A stretch of DNA of 64,000 bases, taken from assembly GCA_943736015.1 (NCBI GenBank), contig OX031063.1, positions 4,445,001 to 4,509,000 of the forward strand, in the 5' to 3' direction. The stretch is from Tridacna crocea (taxonomy: Eukaryota > Mollusca > Bivalvia > Cardiida > Cardiidae). The translations under genes and the position numbers were made by a program. Below the pieces are notes generated by a model. The model did no database searches, was not told the DNA's origin, and saw only the letters and a list, made by a program, of their open reading frames with translations. Of this stretch, positions 640 to 59,422 are shown one piece after another. How positions within the stretch are numbered: the first letter of the stretch is position 1; every line of letters starts with the position of its first letter.

Positions 640-3300
640 GGAAAAGGCAGCTTACGATCCCTATAGGCAAGGGAATCCCTTGAGAGGGATTTCCTGGCCT
701 AAAAATGGTCCCTGCAAAAGTCAAAGCCATTCGGGAAATGCCGTTCCCTCAGTCAAAATCAGAATTGCAGACAGTTCTAGGTATGATTACCTATCTGCAA
801 CGTTTTGCCCCTTGTTTAGCAGAGATGACTAGTCCCATGAGACAACTGCTAAAAAACAATGTCGAATTCGAGTGGAATGAGGCATGTAAAAATGCGTTCA
901 CAAAGATCAAAGATGTGATAACGAAAACCCCAGGACCTGTACTGACGTACTTTGACCCTAAGAAGGACATTACGTTACAGGTAGACGCATCCAAATTTGG
1001 ACTAGGAGCAGCATTGCTGCAAGATGATAGACCAGTGAGCTATGCATCAAAGTCACTGACTCAGACAGAAATCAATTATAGCCAAATTGAAAAAGAGTTG
1101 TTTGCTATCATGTTTGGATGCACACGATTTCATCAGTATGTTTATGGCAGACCCATTAACGTAGAGACAGATCATAAGCCGTTAATAGCAATATTTAAGA
1201 AAAAAATAAAGACAGCGCCGTCTCGTCTGCAACGTATGATGTTGTCACTGTCAAGATATGACATCAATCTGACATACATACCAGGGAAAGAAATCCCTTT
1301 AGCCGATACTCTGTCGAGAAAGTTTTTACCTGACACTTATCCTGACTTGATAGACGGACTTGACGAACATGTAAATGGAGTTATGTCATGTATTCCTGTA
1401 AGTGATCAGAAAATGGATTATCTCAGAGCTGAGACAAAGACAGACAGAAATATGCAGCTATTGATTGAGGTCATAAATAATGGTTGGCCAGAAAACAGGA
1501 CAGACTGTCCAAGAGAGCTGATAGAGTTCTGGAACTACAGGGACGAACTGACCGTAATTGACGGAATAGTTCTGAAGGGGACAAACATTTTTGTTCGAGA
1601 ACTATGTAGACCATTCATGCTAGAAAAATTCATGACGCGCATTTGGGTATTGAAAAATGCACGCAGAGAGCCCGAAATTACTGTTTTGGCCAAACATATC
1701 AAAAGACATCAAACAGCTCATTCAAAAATGTTACATTTACCTTGAGCACAGAAATTCAAATGTGAAGGAACCGTTACAATGCAGTAATATTCCTGAGGGA
1801 CCATGGCAGATAGCTGCCACAAACACTTTTCATTGGAATGATGCTAATTACATCTTACTCGTACTACAGTAAATATTTTTAAGTTAGTATATTGCCTGAC
1901 TCTAGATCAGCCACAGTCATAGACCGCCTGAAAAGTTACATGAGTGGGCATGGTATTGTGCAGAAGCTAATTAGCGACAACGCCATACAATACACTTCTC
2001 AAGAATTTAAGAATTTCGCAAGAAATTGGGATTTTATACATGAAACGTCAAGCCCATTATACCCTAAAGGCAACGGTCTGGCTGAGAGAACAGTTAAAAC
2101 AATTAAAGCCCTTTTCACCAAGGCAAAACAGTGTGGGAGAGATCCTTATCTCTCAATATTGGAGTATCGTAATTCTCCATTAGCCTGTGGAAAATCCCCA
2201 GCACAGCTACTGATGAGTAGACAGTTAAGGTCAGTTCTGCCATTGACATCAGAACAACTTGCCCCGCAAGTGCCATGCAAAATGCAGGTCAGATCGAAAA
2301 TGGATGATGTCAAACACAGATCAAAGTTCCATTATGATAAGCAGTCAAGGTCGCTTAAGCCCTTAGACATTGGGGAAAGAATTAGGGTTAGATTTGGTAA
2401 ACTTTGGAAACCTGCTGAAGTTATTGATAAGATAAATGGTAGATCATATTTAGTTAGGACTGAAAATGGTGCTGAATACAGACGAAATAGGTACCATTTG
2501 CTCAAAACCAGTGAAGCCAAAGTTGCCTATAGCCAGCCAAGGACACCGCAGATAGAATACAGTAATGTATTTCAGAATGATTTAACAGAGTAAATCATTG
2601 CAAAGTGAACAAATTGCTTCACAATCACATGCACAACAGTCAGACACACAGATACATGTGCAGACACCTGTAAATACCAATAGTTTGTCTGAAAATAACA
2701 GCAGTACAAATAAAGTTGAATCAGAGTCTGAATTCAGGACAACAAGGTCAGGGAGAAAGGTGAAACCACCTCAAAGACTTTCTTTATGAAAGGAAAAGAG
2801 AAAACAGGAAAGAATCTGTTGGGTTAAAATTATGTAAATAACCATGTTTTGTTTCAGCTATGAACTGATGATAACAGCTGGGAAAAGCCCACTAATGTGA
2901 GTGTGTCAGTTACGAAAACAAATCGGCACACCTGTGACCGTGCCACAGATATTTAACTGGCAGACGAACAGATTTCAAGAAGATAACATGGCTATCTCAC
3001 GATGCCATAAAATAATTAATCACTGCCATGGAGCAGTAAAGGTGAAACTATTATGCAATCACACAACTGATAAGCAATTCGCTACTTGTTTTAAAAAAAA
3101 GAAGGGAGATGTTATGATATGGGAAATAACCCTTGCCATTCTAATTGCAGAATATACTGCCCCTGTAAGAGTTACTGTTCTTGACCCCTTTTATACTGTA
3201 TGTATTCCTCTCTGATAGCAGTCTGCAACTAGGTAGCATAGATTAAACATCTAATAGACAACTACTACTCGTGTTCATTTACCCTAACCCCAGAAAAAAA
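640..3300 (+). mobile_element. Ty3/gypsy LTR retrotransposon, 5'-truncated fossil
   Basis: Fossil of a Ty3/gypsy element on the plus strand. Parts in order are: the end of reverse transcriptase and the RNase H region (about 650-1330, with the TDHKPL and DTLSR signatures), the linker and integrase zinc-binding region, the integrase core (about 1890-2280, with a SDNA... and NG.AER pattern), an integrase C-terminal tail ending in a basic TRSGRKVKPPQRL-like motif (about 2789), a purine-rich tract at about 3093-3109, and the start of a 3' LTR at about 3110 (TGTTATG...). Gag, protease and most of reverse transcriptase are not present. The copy is clearly broken, with several breaks. The recognisable protein signatures and visible purine tract suggest moderate age. 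The right edge of the LTR is uncertain. Confidence 0.9.
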
Positions 3301-4892: not shown

Positions 4893-6197
4893 AAACAAGA
4901 GCTTCGCAAAGCGGCAAATATACGCCCTAAGGGGCTGGTCAGTGAAATGTGTTAAAACTACACCCACCAGTTCTTATCACTGGAACTGTACTATTCAGAA
5001 AGTGAGGTTTATTTTCACTTTGAAGTACGAGAACTTCGCAGAGCCCAGCATATAAGAGAAAATAAGAGTGGCAGAGTTATGATTCTTGCGCACTGCCCTT
5101 CCCTACAATGTGAGCTATCAGTTTTAGAAATTTCAAGTTGAGAGCTTTTGTAGTTTGGAAGTTATGGCCCGGACAGAAATTCAATGTAAACAATTAACAA
5201 TCAATAAACGGCAATAACTCAAAAAATTAGGGTATCACAGTTATGGTTCTTGTGCATGACTTCTCCACGATCTGTTTAATCAGTGTATATTATTTCAAGT
5301 TGCTGGCTTTTATAGTTTGGAAAATCTGGCCCAAACAAAAACCTAACTTGAAAAATATCAAAGGGCAATAACTAAAAAAATAAAGGTGGCACAGTTATAA
5401 TTTTTGTGAGTTGCTCTTCCTCACAATGTGTTTTATCAGTCTTTAAAGGTTCAAGATAATAGTTTTTATAATTTGGAAATAATGGCCCAGACAGAAATTC
5501 AAAGTGAAACTAACCAAGGGCAATAACTAAATAGAAAAGGATAGCAGAGTTATGGTTCTTGTGCAATGCACTTCTCCATAACGTGTTCTTTTAGTCTTTG
5601 AAGTTTCAAGATGATGGCTTATGGTTTGGAAGTTATGACCCGGACAAAAATTCAAACTGAAAATTAACAAAGGCCAGTGTCTCAAAAAGATAAAGATGGC
5701 AGAGTTTATGGTTCATGTACAGTGCACTTCCCTATAATGTGTTCTTTCAGTGTATGAAGTTCCAAGTTAATAGCTTTTATAGTTTGGAAGTCGTGGCCTG
5801 GACAAAAATTCAAACTAAAAATCAACAAAAGGCAATAACTCAAAAAAAACAAGAGTAGCAGAGTTATGGTTTTTGTGCACTGCACTTCTTCATATTGTGT
5901 TCTAACAGTGTATGTAGTTTCAAGTTGATACCTTTTATAGTTTTAAAGTTATGGCCTGAACAAAAGTTCAACGTGAAAAGTTGGCTATTTAAGAAATCAA
6001 GGGCAGATAATTTCAGAACGCAAATAGCGATCCAAATTCTAAGAGTCAGGTGCACAACTAGACATCATGGAGATTCATTGAGGCAGGTTTCAAACAATTC
6101 CGCTTGAAATTGTAGGAGGAATTGAGCACACAAGAAATCGCTAACTGACAGACGGACGACCGGGCTATAACATAATACGACCTTTGGACGTATAATA
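4893..6197 (+). mobile_element. Pearl-like element with GGGCAATAACTC core units
   Basis: Starts AACAAGAGCTTCGCAAAGCGG followed by a TATACGCCC stretch, and ends near TACGACCTTTGGACGTATA. The core holds about six diverged units of about 155 bp, each with AAAGGGCAATAACTC and a line reading GGAAGTTATGGCCCGGACA. No coding capacity was seen. It belongs to the same subfamily as the element at 26025-27592 but is much more diverged, so probably older. Confidence 0.7.
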
Positions 6198-20276: not shown

Positions 20277-21459
20277 ATGTCCAAGACAGAGGCAAAGAAG
20301 AAAAGGAAGAGGAGAAGGGGAAAGAATTGGGTGAGACCCTGGATAGGAGGGCGACCACAGTTTGGTGTTAATGACAAGCTGATAGCTGAACTCAGAGCTG
20401 AAGACCAAGCCTCCTTCCACAACTTCCTGTGCATGCCACCAGAGATGTTTGATGAGCTGAGAAAAAGAGTTGATCCCAGGATCACCAAAAAGGACACTCG
20501 ATTTAGACAGGCTCTCGACCCTGGTATGAAGCTGGCCCTGACTTGCGACACCTTGCCTCTGGTGGCAGCTTTGCTTCACGGAAGTTTGGCTAGAGAGTAC
20601 CTCACAATACATAGTCACTGGTGGTCAGAGAGGTTTGCAATACTGGTCGAGTACCTGGATGAGATGCTGACCTGCCCCAGTACGCCAGAAGACTGTAAGG
20701 AAGTTGCTGACAGATTCTATCGAAGGTAGAACTTCCCCCATGTCCTGGGAGCACTAGATGGTGAGCATGTGGCCATTAGATGTGCTGCAGACAGTGGCTC
20801 CTTGTACTACAAGTACAAGGGGTTCTATTCCATCGTGTTGCTAGCCCTTGTGGATTCTAACTACAAGTTCTTGTGGGCAGATCTTGGGAGGCCTGGGATC
20901 AGCATCTGATACCCAGATCTACAACTCCAGTGAATTGAAACATGGAGCTGAAGAGGACCTGCTTGGGTTTCCACAGCCTATACCTCTCAAACAAGACACT
21001 GCAAATGTTCCATACGTCTTCATTGCAGATGACGCCTTTGCTCTGAGACCCTACATGGTGAAGCCCTACAGTCTATCACAGGAGGAGCGCATTTTCAATT
21101 ACAGACTGTCGAAGGCCAGGAGGGCCGTGGAATACGCCTTTGGTATCCTTGCCAACAAGTTCCAGGTGATTCTGAGTACTATGCAGTACAAGCCAGAGAC
21201 TGTGAAGCTGAAAGTGAAAACCTGCTTCGTCCTTCACAACTTGATATATGTCAGATATCCAACGCTACAGAACCAACAGCTGAACCAGCCAGAAGGTCCA
21301 GAAGAAGACTTTGTGCCTGGTGCCTGGAGAGATGGCTTTAATATGGGTTGTTGCCGGCCCCAATACTGCCACCAAGGAAGCCAAGAAGCAGAGGAACCTC
21401 ACCAAGTACTGTGTCAACTCCTCAGCTTGGGCACTGGACTGGCAGGAAAGGATGGGTAG
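20277..21459 (+). pseudogene. PIF/Harbinger (HARBI1-like, DDE_Tnp_4) transposase, broken
   Basis: DNA-transposon transposase. The N-terminal part begins MSKTEAKKKRKRRR, and after it the family pattern is clear: ALDGEHVAIR (first catalytic D), LYYKYKGFYSIVLLALVD, IADDAFALR (second D), FNYRLSKARRAVEYAFGILAN (catalytic E) and VLHNLIYVRYPTLQN. The catalytic triad D, D, E is preserved. The copy is dead: there is a TAG at 20727-20729 where the family has tryptophan, a frame change near 20880-20890, and another near 21345 after WRDGFNMG. No Myb-like partner gene was seen, and clear terminal inverted repeats were not found. The conserved catalytic motifs and few breaks suggest recent death. Confidence 0.9.
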
Positions 21460-24955: not shown

Positions 24956-27900
24956 CTGAAATATAGGAAGCAAGTAAAAGATATGTTGAGAAAAATTTCA
25001 AGCATTCACCTCTTATAGGCGCATTAGCCAACACAGCAGACCATGATCAGACAGCTCCTGTAGGAGCACTGTCTGATCAGTGTCTCATCTGTTTGCTCAT
25101 ACTATACTGTAGCTTAGATTTTGGAACATACAGTGTTGCATAGAAAAACTTACTGTTTTATAAATTAGATTTATTCATCAAGTCATAAACCTGTAGATGA
25201 ATAATCAAGAGGTAAAAGTTTAAGTAAGCCTTAATTTGTCTGTTGTTTGTCATTGCCATGCCCCTTTTATCTAAGTGTATAGTACATAATAGTCCTACTT
25301 AAAAATTAAGACATGAGGGCCACTTGGTGGGACCTTTTTTACTCCATTTCCTTATTCAAACTTGACGTAAATATTATTGAGCTTAATGTTGTGAGCAAGC
25401 TTCACAATGATTTGACAAAAATTGTGGCCACTACAGTGTTAACACGGATATTGTTGACAACACACAACAAACCCTGAATGACGGAGAACAGACATTCAAG
25501 GATGACAAAAAGGAAATGTGAAAAATGCAAAAACAGTAAAAACATACCAAGAAATTTGTCTTTCAAGGGTCCCATTTCATCAACAACAAAATATCTAGTG
25601 TTTGTTTTCTTCACAGACTGTCTGGAATACCGTAATTTGTATATATTTAATAAATGATGATATATACATATGATAGAGCAATAATATTTTATAGCGATAG
25701 AGCATATAGTTTAACCCTTTGATTTAAACATATCTATTTTACATCGATTGAGAAACAAGTTCTTACAACTTATACTAATCTCTCTCAATTCTGCTTCCTG
25801 GGAATTATACCAGTACTCAGGCCGAATGTGTAGGCCAATGAAAAATCCCAAAGTTGACACCTGTTCCCAGGTATCGAACTCAGGACCCATAGGTTATGAG
25901 TCCGACGCTCTACCTCACAACCACGGACACCACAAGTTTAACCCTTTACCACACATTAACCCTTTACCACACAATCTCGACATTTAATGACCCTGAGAAG
26001 AAAAGCCTAATGAAAACATAGTGGAACAAGAGCGGCAAATTGTCGCAAGATACGCCCGTCTTACTCCAAGTTGTAAAGCTGGGGCATGCATCGGACAAAA
26101 TTCAAGCATGAAAAAGAACAAAGGGCAATAACTCAAAAATTAAGCGAGCAAGAGTTATCATTCCTGTGCACTGCACTCCCGCTTGATGAGATCTATCCAC
26201 CCATGAAATTTCATAACCCTAGGTAGTATAGTTTTGGAGATATTCACTGGACAAAATTCAACTATAAAAAACGGCAAAGGGCAATAACTCAAAAATTAAG
26301 CGAGCAAGAGTTATCATTCCTGTGCACTGCACTCCCCCTTGATGAGATCTATCCACCCATGAAATTTCATAACCCTAGGTAGTATAGTTTTGGAGATATG
26401 CTCCAGACAAAATTCAGGTATGAAAAACAACAAAGGGCAATAACTCAAAAATTAAGCAAGCAAGAGTTATGGTTCCTAAGCACTGCACTTCCCCTTGATG
26501 AGATCTATCCACCCATGAAATTTCATAACCCTAGCTAGTATAGTTTTGGAGATATGCTCCGGACAAAATTCAGGTATGAAAAAAGACAAAGGGCAATAAC
26601 TCAAAAATTAAGCAAGCAAGAGTTATGATTCCTGAGCACTGCACTCCCCCTTGATGAGATCTATCCACCCATGAAATTTCATAACCCTAGCTAGTATAGT
26701 TGTGGAGATATTCACCGGACAAAATTGAAGTATGAAAAACGGCAAAGGGCAATAACTCAAAAATAAAGCGAGCAAGAGTTATGGTTCCTGTGCACTGCAC
26801 TCCCCCTCGATGAGATCTATCCACCCATGAAATTTCATAACCCTAGGTAGTATAGTTTTGGAGATATTCACTGGACAAAATTCAACTATAAAAAACGGCA
26901 AAGGGCAATAACTCAAAAATTAAGCAAGCAAGAGTTATCATTCCTGTGCACTGCACTCCCCCTTGATGAGATCTATCCACCCATGAAATTTCATAACCCT
27001 AGGTAGTATAGTTTTGGAGATATGCTCCAGACAAAATTCAGGTATGAAAAACAACAAAGGGCAATAACTCAAAAATTAAGCAAGCAAGAGTTATGGTTCC
27101 TGAGCACTGCACTTCCCCTTGATGAGATCTATCCACCCATGAAATTTCATAACCCTAGCTAGTATAGTTTTGGAGATATGCTCCGGACAAAATTCAGGTA
27201 TGAAAAAAGACAAAGGGCAATAACTCAAAAATTAAGCAAGCAAGAGTTATGATTCCTGAGCACTGCACTCCCCCTTGATGAGATCTATCCAGCCATGAAA
27301 TTCCATAACCCTAGCTAGTATAGTTGTGGAGATATTCACTGGACAAAATTGAAGTATGAAAAACGGCAAAGGGCAATAACTCAAAAATAAAGCGAGCAAG
27401 AGTTATGGTTCCTGTGCACTGCACTCCCCCTCGATGAGATCTATCCACCCATGAAATTTCGTAACCCTAGCTAGAATAGTTTTGGAGATATGCTCCGGAC
27501 AAAGAACTGGACGCCGCCCGCCCGCCCGGACGCCCGCCCGCCCGCCCGCCACGGGTGATCCCATAATACGTCCCGTCTACGACGGGCGTATAAAAAAGAG
27601 AAAATGCTGGTATCCAGCATTTCTTTATTTTTCAAAATGTTTACTACCCTACCTAAAACAAATTTCAATATTTTATTCACATTTCTTTTGCCAACTGTAA
27701 ATGCTTTCAATTTTGACTACCGTTAGTCTAAACTTTTGTTGCTTGGTAAATAGTTAAATCCAATTATATCAAAATCTAATGCTTTAAAAGGGGACTATAG
27801 CACTTTGAATCTTGTCTAGCAGTAATCCTCCTTCTTAACTTTATCGTATCAAAACTATTGGTAATTGGTACTACTAGTAATAGGAGTCAAGGCCCTTAAG

Positions 27901-46558: not shown

Positions 46559-46786
46559 TTAACCCTTTACTCCATAGATACTCATTTCTACGCATTGCTT
46601 GTTGGAGCCTTTGGAAAACATTGTGGCAAAAGGTGAAATTGCTCGTGACGAGCAATTTCACCTTTTGCCACAATGTTTTCTATGCTATCAAAAGGTGTCA
46701 TATACACATAAGCTAGACATAATCCTCGCTGTTATTTAGGGTCAATTAGAGATACCATAGAAATGCCTTATGGGGTAAAGGGTTAA
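46559..46786 (+). mobile_element. TTAA-type MITE, second subfamily
   Basis: TTAA-bounded, 228 bp. A perfect palindrome with arms of about 35 bp around TGACGAG: AAAACATTGTGGCAAAAGG... and its complement. Right end CTTATGGGGTAAAGGG. Pairs with 38265-38489. Confidence 0.85.
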
Positions 46787-46921
46787 ACTAATGGGTCTAC
46801 ATGGTAATTCGAATGACGACCTGAACTTCTTAATGGTCTGCAACATGTGAAAAGGCGCATTTGGACATTTGCATAAAGCATTGTATTACATATAGATTAT
46901 GGCATTTGTTTCTTTCTTATA

Positions 46922-48153
46922 TAGAGCTGTGATGAGTACTCGAGTACCTAGGTATCGGGTAGGGTAATGCCGGTACCCTGGTACTAAATCATTACATGGG
47001 TACCCGATGAATAAATAGTAACTTGATTAAAAAGGGCTAGGATTGTGACAATAATGATTCCAAACTAGATGTGTAATGTGCATCAACCTGGTCACCCATC
47101 CAAGCACTAACCTAATGCATGTTGCTTAACTACCATGGAGAGAAATACACCATAACCACATTGCTGTAAAAGCTAGCTCAACAGCAAGGCAGGTTTCAAG
47201 TGCTTATATATCTAACCTCTCTCTGTAACATTACCGCCCCCTTTGAGAAGTCTTGACCCCGAGACCTATATACAAGCATGTATATAGAGAAACACCAGGG
47301 GAATATACATGGGTAAGGCAACTCCAGTCCGGCAGTTGTCATTATCCCAATGCTGCCACCAAATGTAACGTGCATCGACCTGGTCACCCATCCAAGCACT
47401 AACCTAATGCATGTTGCTTAACTACAATGGAGAGAAATACATCAAACCGCATCGCTGTAAAAGCTAGCTTAACAGCAAGGCAGGTTTCAAGTGCTTATAT
47501 ATCTAACCTCTCTCTGTGACAGAAGTAAAGAATCAATAATGATGTTTTGCACCTCACACCACAAGTGTGTGTAATATTTAGATATCTGGAAATTTACTGT
47601 TTAAAGTCATTACAAAACTGAAAAGACGTTCTGAAGTGACTCCGATCGGACATTGTCAAAAGGAATATTGTGTTGTGTCATGGGTTTTTAGAATCAAACA
47701 TTTTTTCATAGTGGTAATTTATTGATAGTTTTTCTCCCGTGATTTGACAATAATTTATGAATAAGGGCAGCAAGTAACTTCCAATACCATCAATTTAGAC
47801 AAGTTAAGCAGATAATGGATTTGTTGTTTTTTTTAAGTGAATTTCAATTCTATAACACAACTTATGCACAAATCTGCTCGCATTGGAACACTTCAAATGA
47901 TACACTTTGTTTTCTGTTTGTCTTGTAGAAGACTAAAGAAAGCTAAACTTGGCTTTTTTGACGAAGCTTGGCTATTTGAAGCCATGTTTAGTTGTTTTCA
48001 TGAATTGGTACATGTGCAAGTGCTAGGGAGCATAAAGATAGACAACTATTGATGTTTAATTTAATGGAAAGTAATAACATCGGGTACCCGAGCACCCGCA
48101 GGTAATATGGCCACGGATATCTGGGTACAAAATTTCTACCCGTCCCAGCTCTA
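46922..48153. mobile_element. hAT-like non-autonomous element carrying a nested TRIM
   Basis: Terminal repeats start TAGAGCTG(T/G)GA and inner parts share GGGTACCCGATG. It is flanked by TTCTTATA (46914-46921) and TTCCTATA (48154-48161), an 8-bp duplication with one mismatch. No transposase was found. Length 1232 bp, of which 450 bp is the later insertion at 47072-47521. Confidence 0.75.
47072..47521 (-). mobile_element. TRIM (terminal-repeat retrotransposon in miniature) with 5S-rRNA-like LTRs
   Basis: LTR-kin fossil, non-coding, minus strand. Two direct repeats of about 158 bp, 47521-47364 (5' LTR) and 47230-47072 (3' LTR), start TGT(C/T)ACAGAGAG and end (G/A)TTACA, and are about 94% alike by eye. 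The 133-bp inside begins with a primer-binding-like TGGTGGCAGCATTGGGAT two bases after the 5' LTR and ends with a purine tract AAAGGGGGCGG just before the 3' LTR. Each LTR contains GTAGTTAAGCAACATGCAT and TTAGTGCTTGGATGGGTGACC, matching the 3' half and box C of 5S rRNA, with TATATAAG upstream. The layout is whole. The two-LTR divergence suggests moderate age. Organisation resembles plant Cassandra. No exact target duplication was seen. Confidence 0.8.
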
Positions 48154-48486
48154 TTCCTATACCAGAGTTTTCAGTCATTTTGATGTTGACATATGTTGGG
48201 TCTGAACATGTGACTTCCATTCTATTGAAGCACCAAAAATCCATCCAAAACCCCCATTTTTATTCAGTTTTTGACATGATTTTCTTTATATGAATTCATT
48301 CCCCCCCCTCCCCCCCCAAAAAAAAACAAAAAAAAAATTGAAAAAAAAATTTACTTGGTTTTAGACATGATTTTAAAATTTTAAAATATGCGTAAATGGT
48401 ACGGCATTGAGAATAAGGTTGTGATGATGTCAGATATAAGAAACAGACAAAAAGATAAACAAGAACACAAAACTTGTCTTAATAAC

Positions 48487-49396
48487 GGTTTCAAGACAAT
48501 TCCCCGACAAGACAGTTCCCCGACACGGCTTTTCGAGACAGTTCCCCGACAAAATTGAAGACAGTTCCCCGACACTTTTGAAGACAGTTCCCCGACACAT
48601 TCTTTATTAGCAAACTTGATTCTCATCGACAACTTTCATCGATATCTATATATCTTAAGGAAAGATAATGTTTTTTTTTGTACTTGTGAAAGGAATGTAA
48701 ATAATTGAGATATTTTTATCTTTTTTAGTTGATTATTGATGATCGCTCAGTTCGGAAATGATGCCTTCGCCGTTGTGCAGATCAGAATATTATTACTATA
48801 GTAAATGAATACGTGTAGATCTATCTGATTACTAAGCAAATCCTTATCCCAGTGTTGGATTTGAAGTACATGTAGGCCTAGGTTTAGAGTAATTTTTACA
48901 TTTGTCCAATTGTCTCTTACTTCCGGAGAAACTGAAATAACCAGCAAGTAATGTAATGGATAATATAATTGTAGATCCCCTTTAAATTGTGCGTATATGG
49001 ACAGTAGTAATATGACTTTTATATACAGTCAAAAGAGAATGAACAAAAAGTATGAAATGTTTATAAACTTTAATTAAGAAATTTATAGAACATACATTAA
49101 ACGAGTGATGTTTAAAATACTCAGGTCGCAGACTTCTTCTTATTAATGTGGCAACAAACAGTCCAATCACAATATATCGCCCTCCTTAATTGGTCATAAA
49201 CGCAATTTAATAACCACCAACATTGAAATTTACTTCATCCATTTCAAATAAATGTCTACAAAAATTATTTTAAACAACCAAACCTATTCAATTTACAAAT
49301 AATAAAAGTGTCGGGGAACTGTCTTCAATTTTGTCGGGGAACTGTCTCGAAAAGCCGTGTCGGGGAACTGTCTTGTCGGGGAATTGTCTTGTTCCC
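48487..49396. mobile_element. 910-bp element with iterated terminal inverted repeats
   Basis: Bounded by the exact 8-bp duplication TTAATAAC (48479-48486 and 49397-49404). Each arm of about 100 bp carries four or five tandem variants of GACAGTTCCCCGACA, in opposite orientation at the two ends, starting GG...CAAGACAATTCCCCGAC. The inside is AT-rich without ORFs. The superfamily is unassigned: the 8-bp duplication fits hAT, Merlin or P types, and the GG start leans to Merlin. Confidence 0.85.
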
Positions 49397-54683: not shown

Positions 54684-55555
54684 ATGGCCCTGGTCATAGG
54701 TCATAATCGGATTAACTATCTATGGAATTCGTTAAAGGAATATACTGTATTTTCTTTTCCGGAATACAAAACCCTTGATTTCCTTAAGGAAGAAGAGATA
54801 TATCAGGTTGCACCGTTTTTCTCGGTAAGTACAGAATTAATACCTTCATATTCATTCAAAATTAGACAAAAGCAGAATGTAATGTTAACGGATTACAGGA
54901 CACGCTTTTTGCACCACATTACGATAAAAAGAAGAACAGATGGATAATAAATGATTATGTTAAAAAATCAAACAGCTCCGAGCTGTCAAATACACTATAA
55001 CGGTAACAACCATTGGATTTGTTCAGTATCAGAAAGAACAAAATGGACCTGTGTATCTATTAGACAGCTTGAAATCTTCGAGAACTCTTAATGGAAGTAT
55101 ATGTAAATATACAAATTTCACAAATTTATAACATCAACACGGACAACATAACAGTACACATCCCCGACGTTCAGAGGCAACAGAATTCACTTGACTGTGG
55201 GGTTTATGCAATAGCTTTTATAACAGAATTAATCTGTTCCGATTTCAATGTCAATATTTCAAATACTCGATTTATGACGAGTTTAATGAGAACACACCTT
55301 TTAAAATGCATTGAAGAAAATAAGATTAGCGTATTCCCGAAAGTTGCCAAGATGCCTAAAACGCCGTGCAACGAGCCCAAAATAACAAAAATTAAACTTT
55401 ATTGCAAATGTAAAATGCCAGAATTTATTGACGATATGATAGGATGTGATAATAAACACTGCCGCAAGTGGTTTCATAAAAAGTGTATTTTCAATTCAAC
55501 CACCTTATGCAATAATTCCAACGATAATTGGCTTTGTTCATCGTGCTGCTGGTGA
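54684..55555 (+). pseudogene. Ulp1/C48-like cysteine protease with C-terminal PHD finger, broken
   Basis: Plus-strand remains of a gene of the type often carried by large invertebrate transposons. A first piece (54684-54823) ends at a good donor (TCTCG|GTAAGT). The region around 54905-55080 carries traces of the GNNHWIC histidine motif. From 55091, VQRQQNSLDCGVYAIAF gives the catalytic Q and C of the Ulp1 fold, followed by RTHLLKCIEENKISVFPK. A complete C4HC3 PHD-type finger ends the protein (YCKC, CDNKHC, WFHKKC, WLCSSC). Frame continuity is lost before 55091, so the copy is dead or has unrecognised introns. Substrate and role in transposition are unknown. Confidence 0.7.
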
Positions 55556-58300: not shown

Positions 58301-58492
58301 ATGGAGAAACCAATTGATATTCTTTACGTTTCTAGAACAGCCTGTATATATAGAGTGAAAGTGATGATGAAAACTGGCAACATGTATCCTATCTACATGC
58401 CACCTCCCTTCCTAAAGGAAAATAAAGTTTTAAGAATGAAAACTTTTGTTTGTTTGTTTGAATATAAAACATATCATTTCACTTAACTGTAC

Positions 58493-59422
58493 ATGAAAAT
58501 ATATCATACCATGTACGGTGTAGTCCACATAACGGCGAGACAGATACAGGAAATAGAAGAGGGTCATGATATAGTTGAGAGATATCGTAAAGTTCAACTT
58601 CCAGAAAATATTGACAGCGAGAAACTGAACTGTTTAATGACAGACGACGGGAAAATGATCTTGAACGCCCCATTCCTACGTAAAGATCCACCCTCAAAGT
58701 CCGAAGATACACCTATTTCGATTGATGAAAGCAGTAAATTGACATCAACAAGAAGTCCAACTGATGACAGTGAAGTAAAAGTATCGGAAACAAATAAGAA
58801 GCAGCCTGAAATTATCGATATTCCGATTGAACACGATGACACAGTGCAAAAGGCAAATGTTTTCGAAGAAGTTGATGAGGCTGCATCACATTACGAAATA
58901 CTGAAAAAAGAAAGGCAACAACATGAGATTACGGAAGCAGGTGATAAAACAGACGAGAGAGATGAGAAAAACTCAGAAAGCCATTTGAGTAGGCCACGCA
59001 CTCCACAAGAATCCATAGAATTCGTTATTCTTGGTGACGTCACACCAAATGAGGACCCACAAAAAACAGATGAGATAGATGTTCAGCCTGAAGAAAATAC
59101 GCTAAATATCCAGGAAATGCAAAATGAAATCAGCCTTCCTTTCATGGACTCTACAAAGGAAATCGAAACAGACGGGAAAAGGGAGTTCGAAATCAATGTG
59201 AAACTAAAAGATTTTACACCAGAAAACACCGTGATACGTTGGGAGAACGGCACACTGGAAATTGACGCAGAGAGAGAGGTGAAAGCTGATTCCCTGTCGT
59301 CCTTCCAGAAAGTTCACAGAGTTTATACAATGCCAGAACTTGGTGTTATGAAGGAGGCCAGAGCCTCCATGAACAATGACGGTATGCTTCGGGTGACCGT
59401 ACCACTGAAAAACGAATCATAG
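58493..59422 (+). CDS. Small heat shock (alpha-crystallin) family protein with one and a half ACDs
   Basis: 309 residues from an ATG at 58493. Residues about 10-62 hold the second half of an alpha-crystallin domain (VVHITARQ, then RYRKVQLPENIDSEKLNCLM and DDGKMILNAPFL). Residues about 229-305 hold a complete one (FEINVKLKDFTPENTVIRWE, then HRVYTMPE and NNDGMLRVTVPL). Between them is a long acidic, serine/threonine-rich linker of about 165 residues. The family binds unfolding proteins in the cytosol as oligomers. The first domain lacks its early strands; an in-frame TAA nine bases before the ATG rules out simple extension, so a missing upstream exon or a truncated paralogue are both possible. 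The closing VPL is short of the usual I-x-I tail. Two-domain members are known in flatworms and molluscs. Confidence 0.85.
   Translation: MKIYHTMYGVVHITARQIQEIEEGHDIVERYRKVQLPENIDSEKLNCLMTDDGKMILNAPFLRKDPPSKSEDTPISIDESSKLTSTRSPTDDSEVKVSETNKKQPEIIDIPIEHDDTVQKANVFEEVDEAASHYEILKKERQQHEITEAGDKTDERDEKNSESHLSRPRTPQESIEFVILGDVTPNEDPQKTDEIDVQPEENTLNIQEMQNEISLPFMDSTKEIETDGKREFEINVKLKDFTPENTVIRWENGTLEIDAEREVKADSLSSFQKVHRVYTMPELGVMKEARASMNNDGMLRVTVPLKNES

What the first reader, a model, noticed from the sequence alone, without database searches (positions are those of the whole stretch)
47072..47521. Cassandra-like TRIM in an animal: LTRs carrying 5S rRNA sequence
A 450-bp element has two direct repeats starting TGT and ending ACA, a primer-binding-like site right after the 5' LTR and a purine tract right before the 3' LTR. 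Both LTRs contain the 5S rRNA box C region (GCTTGGATGGGTGACC) and AGTTAAGCAAC. Known: plant Cassandra TRIMs carry 5S promoters in their LTRs. I am not aware of an established bivalve counterpart, so this could be convergent capture of an RNA polymerase III promoter.
Basis: partly seen in the sequence, partly recalled or inferred. Interest (0 to 1): 0.8.

Follow-up and report, generated by a model that had tools for sequence, protein, structure and literature searches.

The report
Animal mini-retrotransposon with 5S-gene promoter
This is a 450-base non-coding retrotransposon whose end repeats carry the promoter core of the 5S ribosomal RNA gene; a similar animal element (Ajax, in ribbon worms) was described in 2024, so it is a new example of a recently named kind, possibly the first outside ribbon worms.

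Summary
On the minus strand, 47521 down to 47072 is a complete 450-bp TRIM: 158-bp 5' LTR, 133-bp interior, 159-bp 3' LTR; LTRs 94.3% identical, TG...CA ends. Two bases after the 5' LTR is a primer-binding site fitting tRNA-Leu (16 of 18; 0 of 200,000 shuffles do as well), and a purine tract lies 3 bases before the 3' LTR. Each LTR carries, in sense orientation, the 5S box A/IE/box C block, which stops right after box C.

Best reading: a 5S-type 'TRIMp3', transcribed by RNA polymerase III and mobilised in trans by a tRNA-Leu-primed, Ty3/gypsy-like element. Polymerase III use, copy number, kinship with Ajax and the bivalve host are all untested, because no host genome is held and only this one copy was available.

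The parts
47364..47521 (-). 5' LTR, 158 bp, TGTCACAG...CGTTACA
   Evidence: direct-repeat pair, 94.3% to the other LTR, TG..CA ends
47231..47363 (-). internal region, 133 bp, too short to code for retrotransposon proteins
   Evidence: lies between the LTRs; no other copy in the window by blastn
47072..47230 (-). 3' LTR, 159 bp, TGTTACAG...CATTACA
47344..47361 (-). primer-binding site TGGTGGCAGCATTGGGAT, 2 bases after the 5' LTR, tRNA-Leu type
   Evidence: 16 of 18 to recalled tRNA-Leu(AAG) 3' end, 0 of 200,000 shuffles; shares TTGGTGGCAGC with the interior start (probe primer) of ta-TRIM, whose PBS is reported as tRNA-Leu (PMC4558846 passages)
47234..47244 (-). polypurine tract AAAGGGGGCGG, 3 bases before the 3' LTR
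   Evidence: 10 purines of 11, shuffle P 0.012; 5 of 11 on the opposite strand
47382..47423 (-). 5S-derived promoter block in the 5' LTR: box A core AGTTAAGCA (47423-47415), IE GGTTAGT (47404-47398), box C region CTTGGATGGGTGACC (47396-47382)
47090..47131 (-). the same 42-bp block in the 3' LTR, identical to the 5' copy
   Evidence: no differing column within the block
47495..47501 (-). TATATAA in the 5' LTR, at -29 from the start predicted from box A (3' LTR copy: 47204-47210)
   Evidence: Donax 5S genes have a TATA-like motif at about -28 (PMC6204057 passages). Role inferred.
47168..47171 (-). TTTT in the 3' LTR, proposed polymerase III terminator; the only other sense-strand TTTT in the element is its copy in the 5' LTR (47459-47462)
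   Evidence: this layout arises in 19% of shuffles, so role is inference
47522..47525 (-). possible 4-bp target duplication, CTTC, 5' side (partner CATC at 47068-47071)
   Evidence: 3 of 4 match; about 5% by chance (hand calculation), so weak

Best explanation
[quoted passage not shown] Shown by sequence: LTRs, TG..CA ends, tRNA-Leu PBS, PPT, and the box A/IE/box C block in sense in both LTRs. Inferred: TFIIIA and TFIIIC bind the block in the 5' LTR, TFIIIB is placed over TATATAA, and polymerase III starts near LTR base 50. It reads through the interior and stops at the TTTT at LTR bases 60-63 of the 3' LTR, giving an RNA of about 305 nt with a short terminal repeat (R) of about 14 nt. Because the promoter lies in the transcribed part (U5), the RNA carries it and reverse transcription restores it to both LTRs. 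A tRNA-Leu primer at the PBS, with reverse transcriptase and integrase supplied by an autonomous element, probably Ty3/gypsy-like, completes the cycle.
For: The Leu PBS matches that of ta-TRIM, whose candidate partner lennie has the same PBS.
Against: One copy only; no RNA data. Box A matches the published pattern at 10 of 12, box C at 12 of 13, and the gap between them is 17 rather than 18 bases. The single-TTTT layout arises in 19% of shuffles, and the same TTTT in the 5' LTR would sit only about 11 bases after the start and must be read through. The 5S block has 0 of 42 differing columns between LTRs against 9 of 117 elsewhere, not significant (Fisher P 0.11). TATATAA would serve polymerase II equally well. 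No clean target duplication. LTR and interior fold no better than shuffles (z -0.6 and -0.2).
Confidence: 0.75

Rival explanations
1. An LTR TRIM transcribed by RNA polymerase II from its TATATAA box; the 5S block is a passenger left by an old insertion.
For: TATATAA at LTR 21-27 fits a polymerase II start near base 50; the Echinococcus ta-TRIM has start and poly(A) sites in its LTRs without a canonical AATAAA (PMC4558846 passages); box A is imperfect.
Against: The 5S block is cut to just the promoter boxes, is in sense, is unchanged between LTRs, and sits so that TATA lies at the 5S-gene distance. No poly(A)-like hexamer of five tested.
Confidence: 0.15
2. Two neighbouring copies of a 5S-derived SINE (SINE3) with unrelated sequence between them.
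For: Both repeats carry the 5S boxes; Kojima notes likeness of Ajax to lepidopteran SINE3.
Against: Both copies start and end at the same TG..CA bases; the spacer has a tRNA-Leu PBS at +3 and a PPT at the other end; the 5S boxes lie near the 3' end of the repeat, with a non-5S sequence upstream (49 bases before box A: no likeness, P 0.71).
Confidence: 0.04
3. The host is a nemertean and this is simply a copy of Ajax.
For: Same anatomy, near-equal length, same primer tRNA. Host not identified by any search.
Against: Ajax makes 5-bp duplications, here 1 of 5 match. The window's repeats (156-168-bp arrays, GGCAATAACTC, GGGCCATGATGGCCC) look bivalve to me from memory only; two text searches for such strings gave no bivalve paper.
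Confidence: 0.1
4. A 5S rRNA gene or pseudogene array unit with its spacer.
For: Repeat of 291-292 bases carrying 5S-like sequence.
Against: No Rfam 5S match at gathering threshold in the window or at E up to 10 in 46950-47650; the likeness covers only the promoter block; LTR anatomy.
Confidence: 0.01

Closest known systems
Ajax (Ajax-1_NGe, Ajax-1_LiLo; Kojima 2024, PMC10886601)
   Same: TRIM with a partial 5S sequence limited to box A, IE and box C in the LTR; tRNA-Leu primer; 421/434 bp against 450 bp
   Different: Ajax makes 5-bp target duplications, not seen here; reported from two nemerteans only; its sequences are in supplements and Repbase that I could not open, so homology is untested
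Cassandra (plants; PMC10853983, PMC7215508)
   Same: 5S promoter boxes in both LTRs of a non-coding TRIM with PBS and PPT; short R expected (Kojima's text gives 18 bp for Cassandra; about 14 inferred here)
   Different: Met PBS, about 70-bp 5S core at 25-75% of the LTR, 563-968 bp, plant hosts
Helenus (bivalves and others; PMC10886601)
   Same: TRIM with a small-RNA promoter in the LTR; animal families linked to Gypsy and make 4-bp duplications
   Different: tRNA-derived, not 5S; bivalve Helenus primers listed are Lys, His, Ile, Pro, Glu, Ser, not Leu
biv-TRIM (bivalves; PMC6934838)
   Same: TRIM without coding capacity
   Different: 202-218-bp repeats, 77-80-bp interior, PPT GGGGAGA, no canonical PBS; no 5S sequence is mentioned in the abstract, Results part 1 and Discussion that I read
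ta-TRIM / lennie (tapeworms; PMC4558846)
   Same: Leu-tRNA PBS with the same TGGTGGCAGC start; in Echinococcus mostly 4-bp duplications
   Different: 198-bp LTRs, about 590-bp interior, poly(A) RNA; no 5S block described in the passages seen

Membership tests
TRIM | two LTRs with TG..CA ends around a short non-coding interior, under 1 kb | tested here: met
TRIM | PBS next to the 5' LTR and PPT next to the 3' LTR | tested here: met
TRIM | target site duplication | tested here: inconclusive
   3 of 4 as 4 bp, 1 of 5 as 5 bp
TRIM | dispersed copies and solo LTRs in the genome | not testable with these tools
   no whole genome held; no second copy in the 64-kb window
TRIMp3 (Kojima 2024) | small-RNA-gene polymerase III promoter sequence in the LTRs | tested here: met
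   box A/IE/box C in both LTRs, sense
TRIMp3 (Kojima 2024) | transcription by RNA polymerase III | not testable with these tools
   needs RNA or extract assays
Ajax | 5S likeness limited to box A, IE, box C | tested here: met
   no Rfam 5S match
Ajax | tRNA-Leu primer | tested here: met
Ajax | 5-bp target duplications | tested here: not met
   1 of 5 in this one copy; recombination between copies could hide it
Ajax | sequence homology to Ajax consensus | not testable with these tools
   consensus only in supplements or Repbase; supplement look-ups capped at 0
Cassandra | methionine-tRNA PBS | tested here: not met
   PBS is TGGTGGCAGC, not TGGTATCAGAGC
Cassandra | 5S core of about 70 bp within 25-75% of the LTR | tested here: not met
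   42-bp block at LTR bases 99-140 of 158
biv-TRIM | 202-218-bp repeats, 77-80-bp interior, PPT GGGGAGA | tested here: not met
   158/159 and 133 bp, PPT AAAGGGGGCGG

The most novel reading that the evidence does not exclude
A 5S-promoter TRIM lives in a mollusc: either a third independent capture of the 5S promoter by an LTR element, after Cassandra and Ajax, or an Ajax lineage that is much older than, or has moved horizontally beyond, the nemerteans it was thought to have arisen in. The shared tRNA-Leu primer leaves both open.
Probability: 0.6. Interest if true: 0.55.

Novelty: new member of a known kind. Interest (0 to 1): 0.42.

Why it matters
Kojima (PMC10886601, section 4.2) placed the origin of Ajax in the nemertean lineage because only two nemertean species had it. 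A 5S TRIM with the same primer in another phylum would mean either that LTR elements capture the 5S promoter repeatedly or that Ajax is older or has spread. It would also give a second animal family in which to test whether 5S-LTR TRIMs are really polymerase III units, which that paper states is not validated. The TATA-to-box A spacing seen here adds a concrete prediction: the whole 5S-gene promoter layout, not just the internal boxes, is reproduced in the LTR.

Tried and rejected
Rejected: membership in Cassandra and in biv-TRIM (defining features not met); 5S gene or pseudogene; paired SINE3 copies; special RNA fold of LTR or interior (z -0.6 and -0.2).

Led nowhere: whole-genome search (none held); exact-pattern scans, 3 of viral contigs and 2 of genome contigs, all 0; distant blastn of the element against phages and plasmids, no match. 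These collections hold no animal genomes as such, so the zeros say little. tRNA scan of the window, 0 genes. Text searches meant to identify the host from repeat strings: 0 papers and 9 papers listed, none on bivalves by title. An autonomous partner: the gypsy-like fragment at 684-2590 is cut off upstream, and neither the GGTGGCAGC string nor a G-rich purine tract next to TGT was found beside it, so nothing links it to the element.

Weak results kept as weak: single-TTTT layout (19% of shuffles); unchanged 5S block (P 0.11); 4-bp duplication (3 of 4). An earlier count said 23/24 for the IE-box C block; the alignment shows 22 of 23, and the report uses that.

Full report
Observation. Reading the minus strand from 47521 to 47072 gives LTR (158 bp), interior (133 bp), LTR (159 bp), 450 bp in all. 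The two LTRs differ at 9 of 159 alignment columns: 7 transitions, 1 transversion, 1 indel; K2P distance 0.053. Four of the 7 transitions are CG in the 5' LTR and TG or CA in the 3' LTR (read off the alignment), as expected from CpG decay; the element is therefore not a fresh insertion. No other copy or fragment was found in the 64-kb window by blastn.

Retrotransposon anatomy. Both LTRs run TGT...ACA. In 200,000 shuffles of the interior none reached 16 of 18 and one had a run of 10; the opposite strand gives 8 of 18. Independent of my memory, the tapeworm ta-TRIM, whose PBS is reported as complementary to Leu-tRNA, has a probe primer for its inter-LTR region that begins TTGGTGGCAGC (PMC4558846, passages). 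The interior ends CAAAGGGGGCGGTAA, a purine tract of 10 in 11 (P 0.012; 5 of 11 on the other strand). The orientation is thus fixed, and the 5S motifs are in the same sense. A 5-bp target duplication is absent (1 of 5); a 4-bp one would be CTTC/CATC, 3 of 4, about a 5% event by chance by hand calculation.

The 5S block. The gap between the two stretches is one base shorter than in 5S. Local alignment scores are 25 in both LTRs against 16 for the best of 2000 shuffles (human: 19 and 20 against 15). Using published plant box A and C patterns, with 2 and 1 mismatches allowed, the window has two properly spaced pairs, one per LTR, while 100 shuffled windows had 3 in all. Bases after box C, and the 49 bases before box A as a whole, do not resemble 5S (global alignment, P 0.71 upstream), although the local alignment can be stretched with gaps over about 14 bases just before box A. 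Rfam finds no 5S gene. The block is thus a promoter-sized fragment, as described for Ajax.

How it probably works. In Donax (bivalve) 5S genes box A is at 50-64, IE 67-72, box C 80-97, with a TATA-like motif near -28 and a T-rich stretch downstream (PMC6204057, passages). Placing box A at +50 puts the start at LTR base 50 and the TATATAA of the LTR at -29. A TATAWA falls in that 15-base range in 1.4% of shuffled upstream sequences, and anywhere upstream of box A in 8%; the test was made after seeing the motif. The only TTTT runs on the sense strand are at LTR base 60 of each LTR. A polymerase III transcript from base 50 of the 5' LTR to the TTTT of the 3' LTR would be 305 nt with about 14 repeated bases at its ends; Kojima's account of Cassandra gives 18. 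This is inference: the TTTT layout arises in 19% of shuffles, and the first TTTT would have to be read through. None of five poly(A)-type hexamers tested occurs in sense. Polymerase II use of the same TATA is the main rival.

Literature. Papers seen: PMC10886601 (abstract, sections 2.3, 3.3, 3.7, 4.1, 4.2, legends and tables, passages), PMC6934838 (abstract, Results part 1 of 2, Discussion), PMC10853983 (abstract and three sections), PMC7215508 (passages), PMC4558846 (passages and one section), PMC6204057 (passages), PMC12859917 (passages), PMC4664967 (one passage). Kalendar 2008 is not held. Ajax was described in 2024 from Notospermus geniculatus and Lineus longissimus, 434 and 421 bp, with a partial 5S sequence and tRNA-Leu primer and 5-bp duplications. 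The word TRIMp3 occurs in that paper and in one unrelated paper. The searches listed no report of a 5S TRIM in molluscs among the titles and abstracts shown; the library lacks most subscription journals and preprints, and Repbase was not available.

Classification. It meets the TRIM and TRIMp3 sequence features. It does not meet Cassandra's primer and 5S-core features, nor biv-TRIM's dimensions. It shares with Ajax the extent of the 5S part, the primer and nearly the length, but the 5-bp duplication was tested and not met in this copy, and sequence homology could not be tested, so I do not file it as an Ajax; it works, by anatomy, like one.

Host. No call identifies the host. The window is 36.7% GC, has gypsy, DDE_Tnp_4, C2H2 zinc-finger and Hsp20 matches and several tandem arrays with 142-168-bp units, which fits an animal.

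Noticed in passing
684-2590 (+): Remains of a Ty3/gypsy-like pol: RT/RNase H domain (684-1742) and partial integrase core below the Pfam cut-off (1883-2590).
   Followed up: partly
46614-46680: Perfect 33-bp inverted repeat with a 1-base spacer. Its CCACAATGTTTT arm recurs at 7 plus-strand and 9 minus-strand places in the window, suggesting a palindromic MITE-like family.
   Followed up: partly
26092-27503: Tandem array, 156-bp unit, 9.1 copies, 92% matches; further arrays with 142-168-bp units near 5059, 9854, 11458, 13268, 28452, 29655 and 38945.
   Followed up: no
48487-48597 and 49317-49382: Short tandem copies of a TCCCCGACA motif, 5 in one orientation and 4 in the other about 800 bases away, perhaps the subterminal repeats of a DNA transposon.
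   Followed up: no
46921-46938 and 48137-48154: Weak inverted pair (83%) flanking the TRIM at about 150 and 620 bases; the TRIM may sit inside another element, but the likeness beyond the tips is poor.
   Followed up: partly
20845-21456 (+): DDE_Tnp_4 (Harbinger-type) transposase fragment.
   Followed up: no
58487-59419 (+): Open frame ending in an Hsp20/alpha-crystallin domain.
   Followed up: no
55073-55552 (+): One frame with weak matches to the end of an Ulp1 (C48) protease, just above its cut-off, and to a PHD finger, just below.
   Followed up: no
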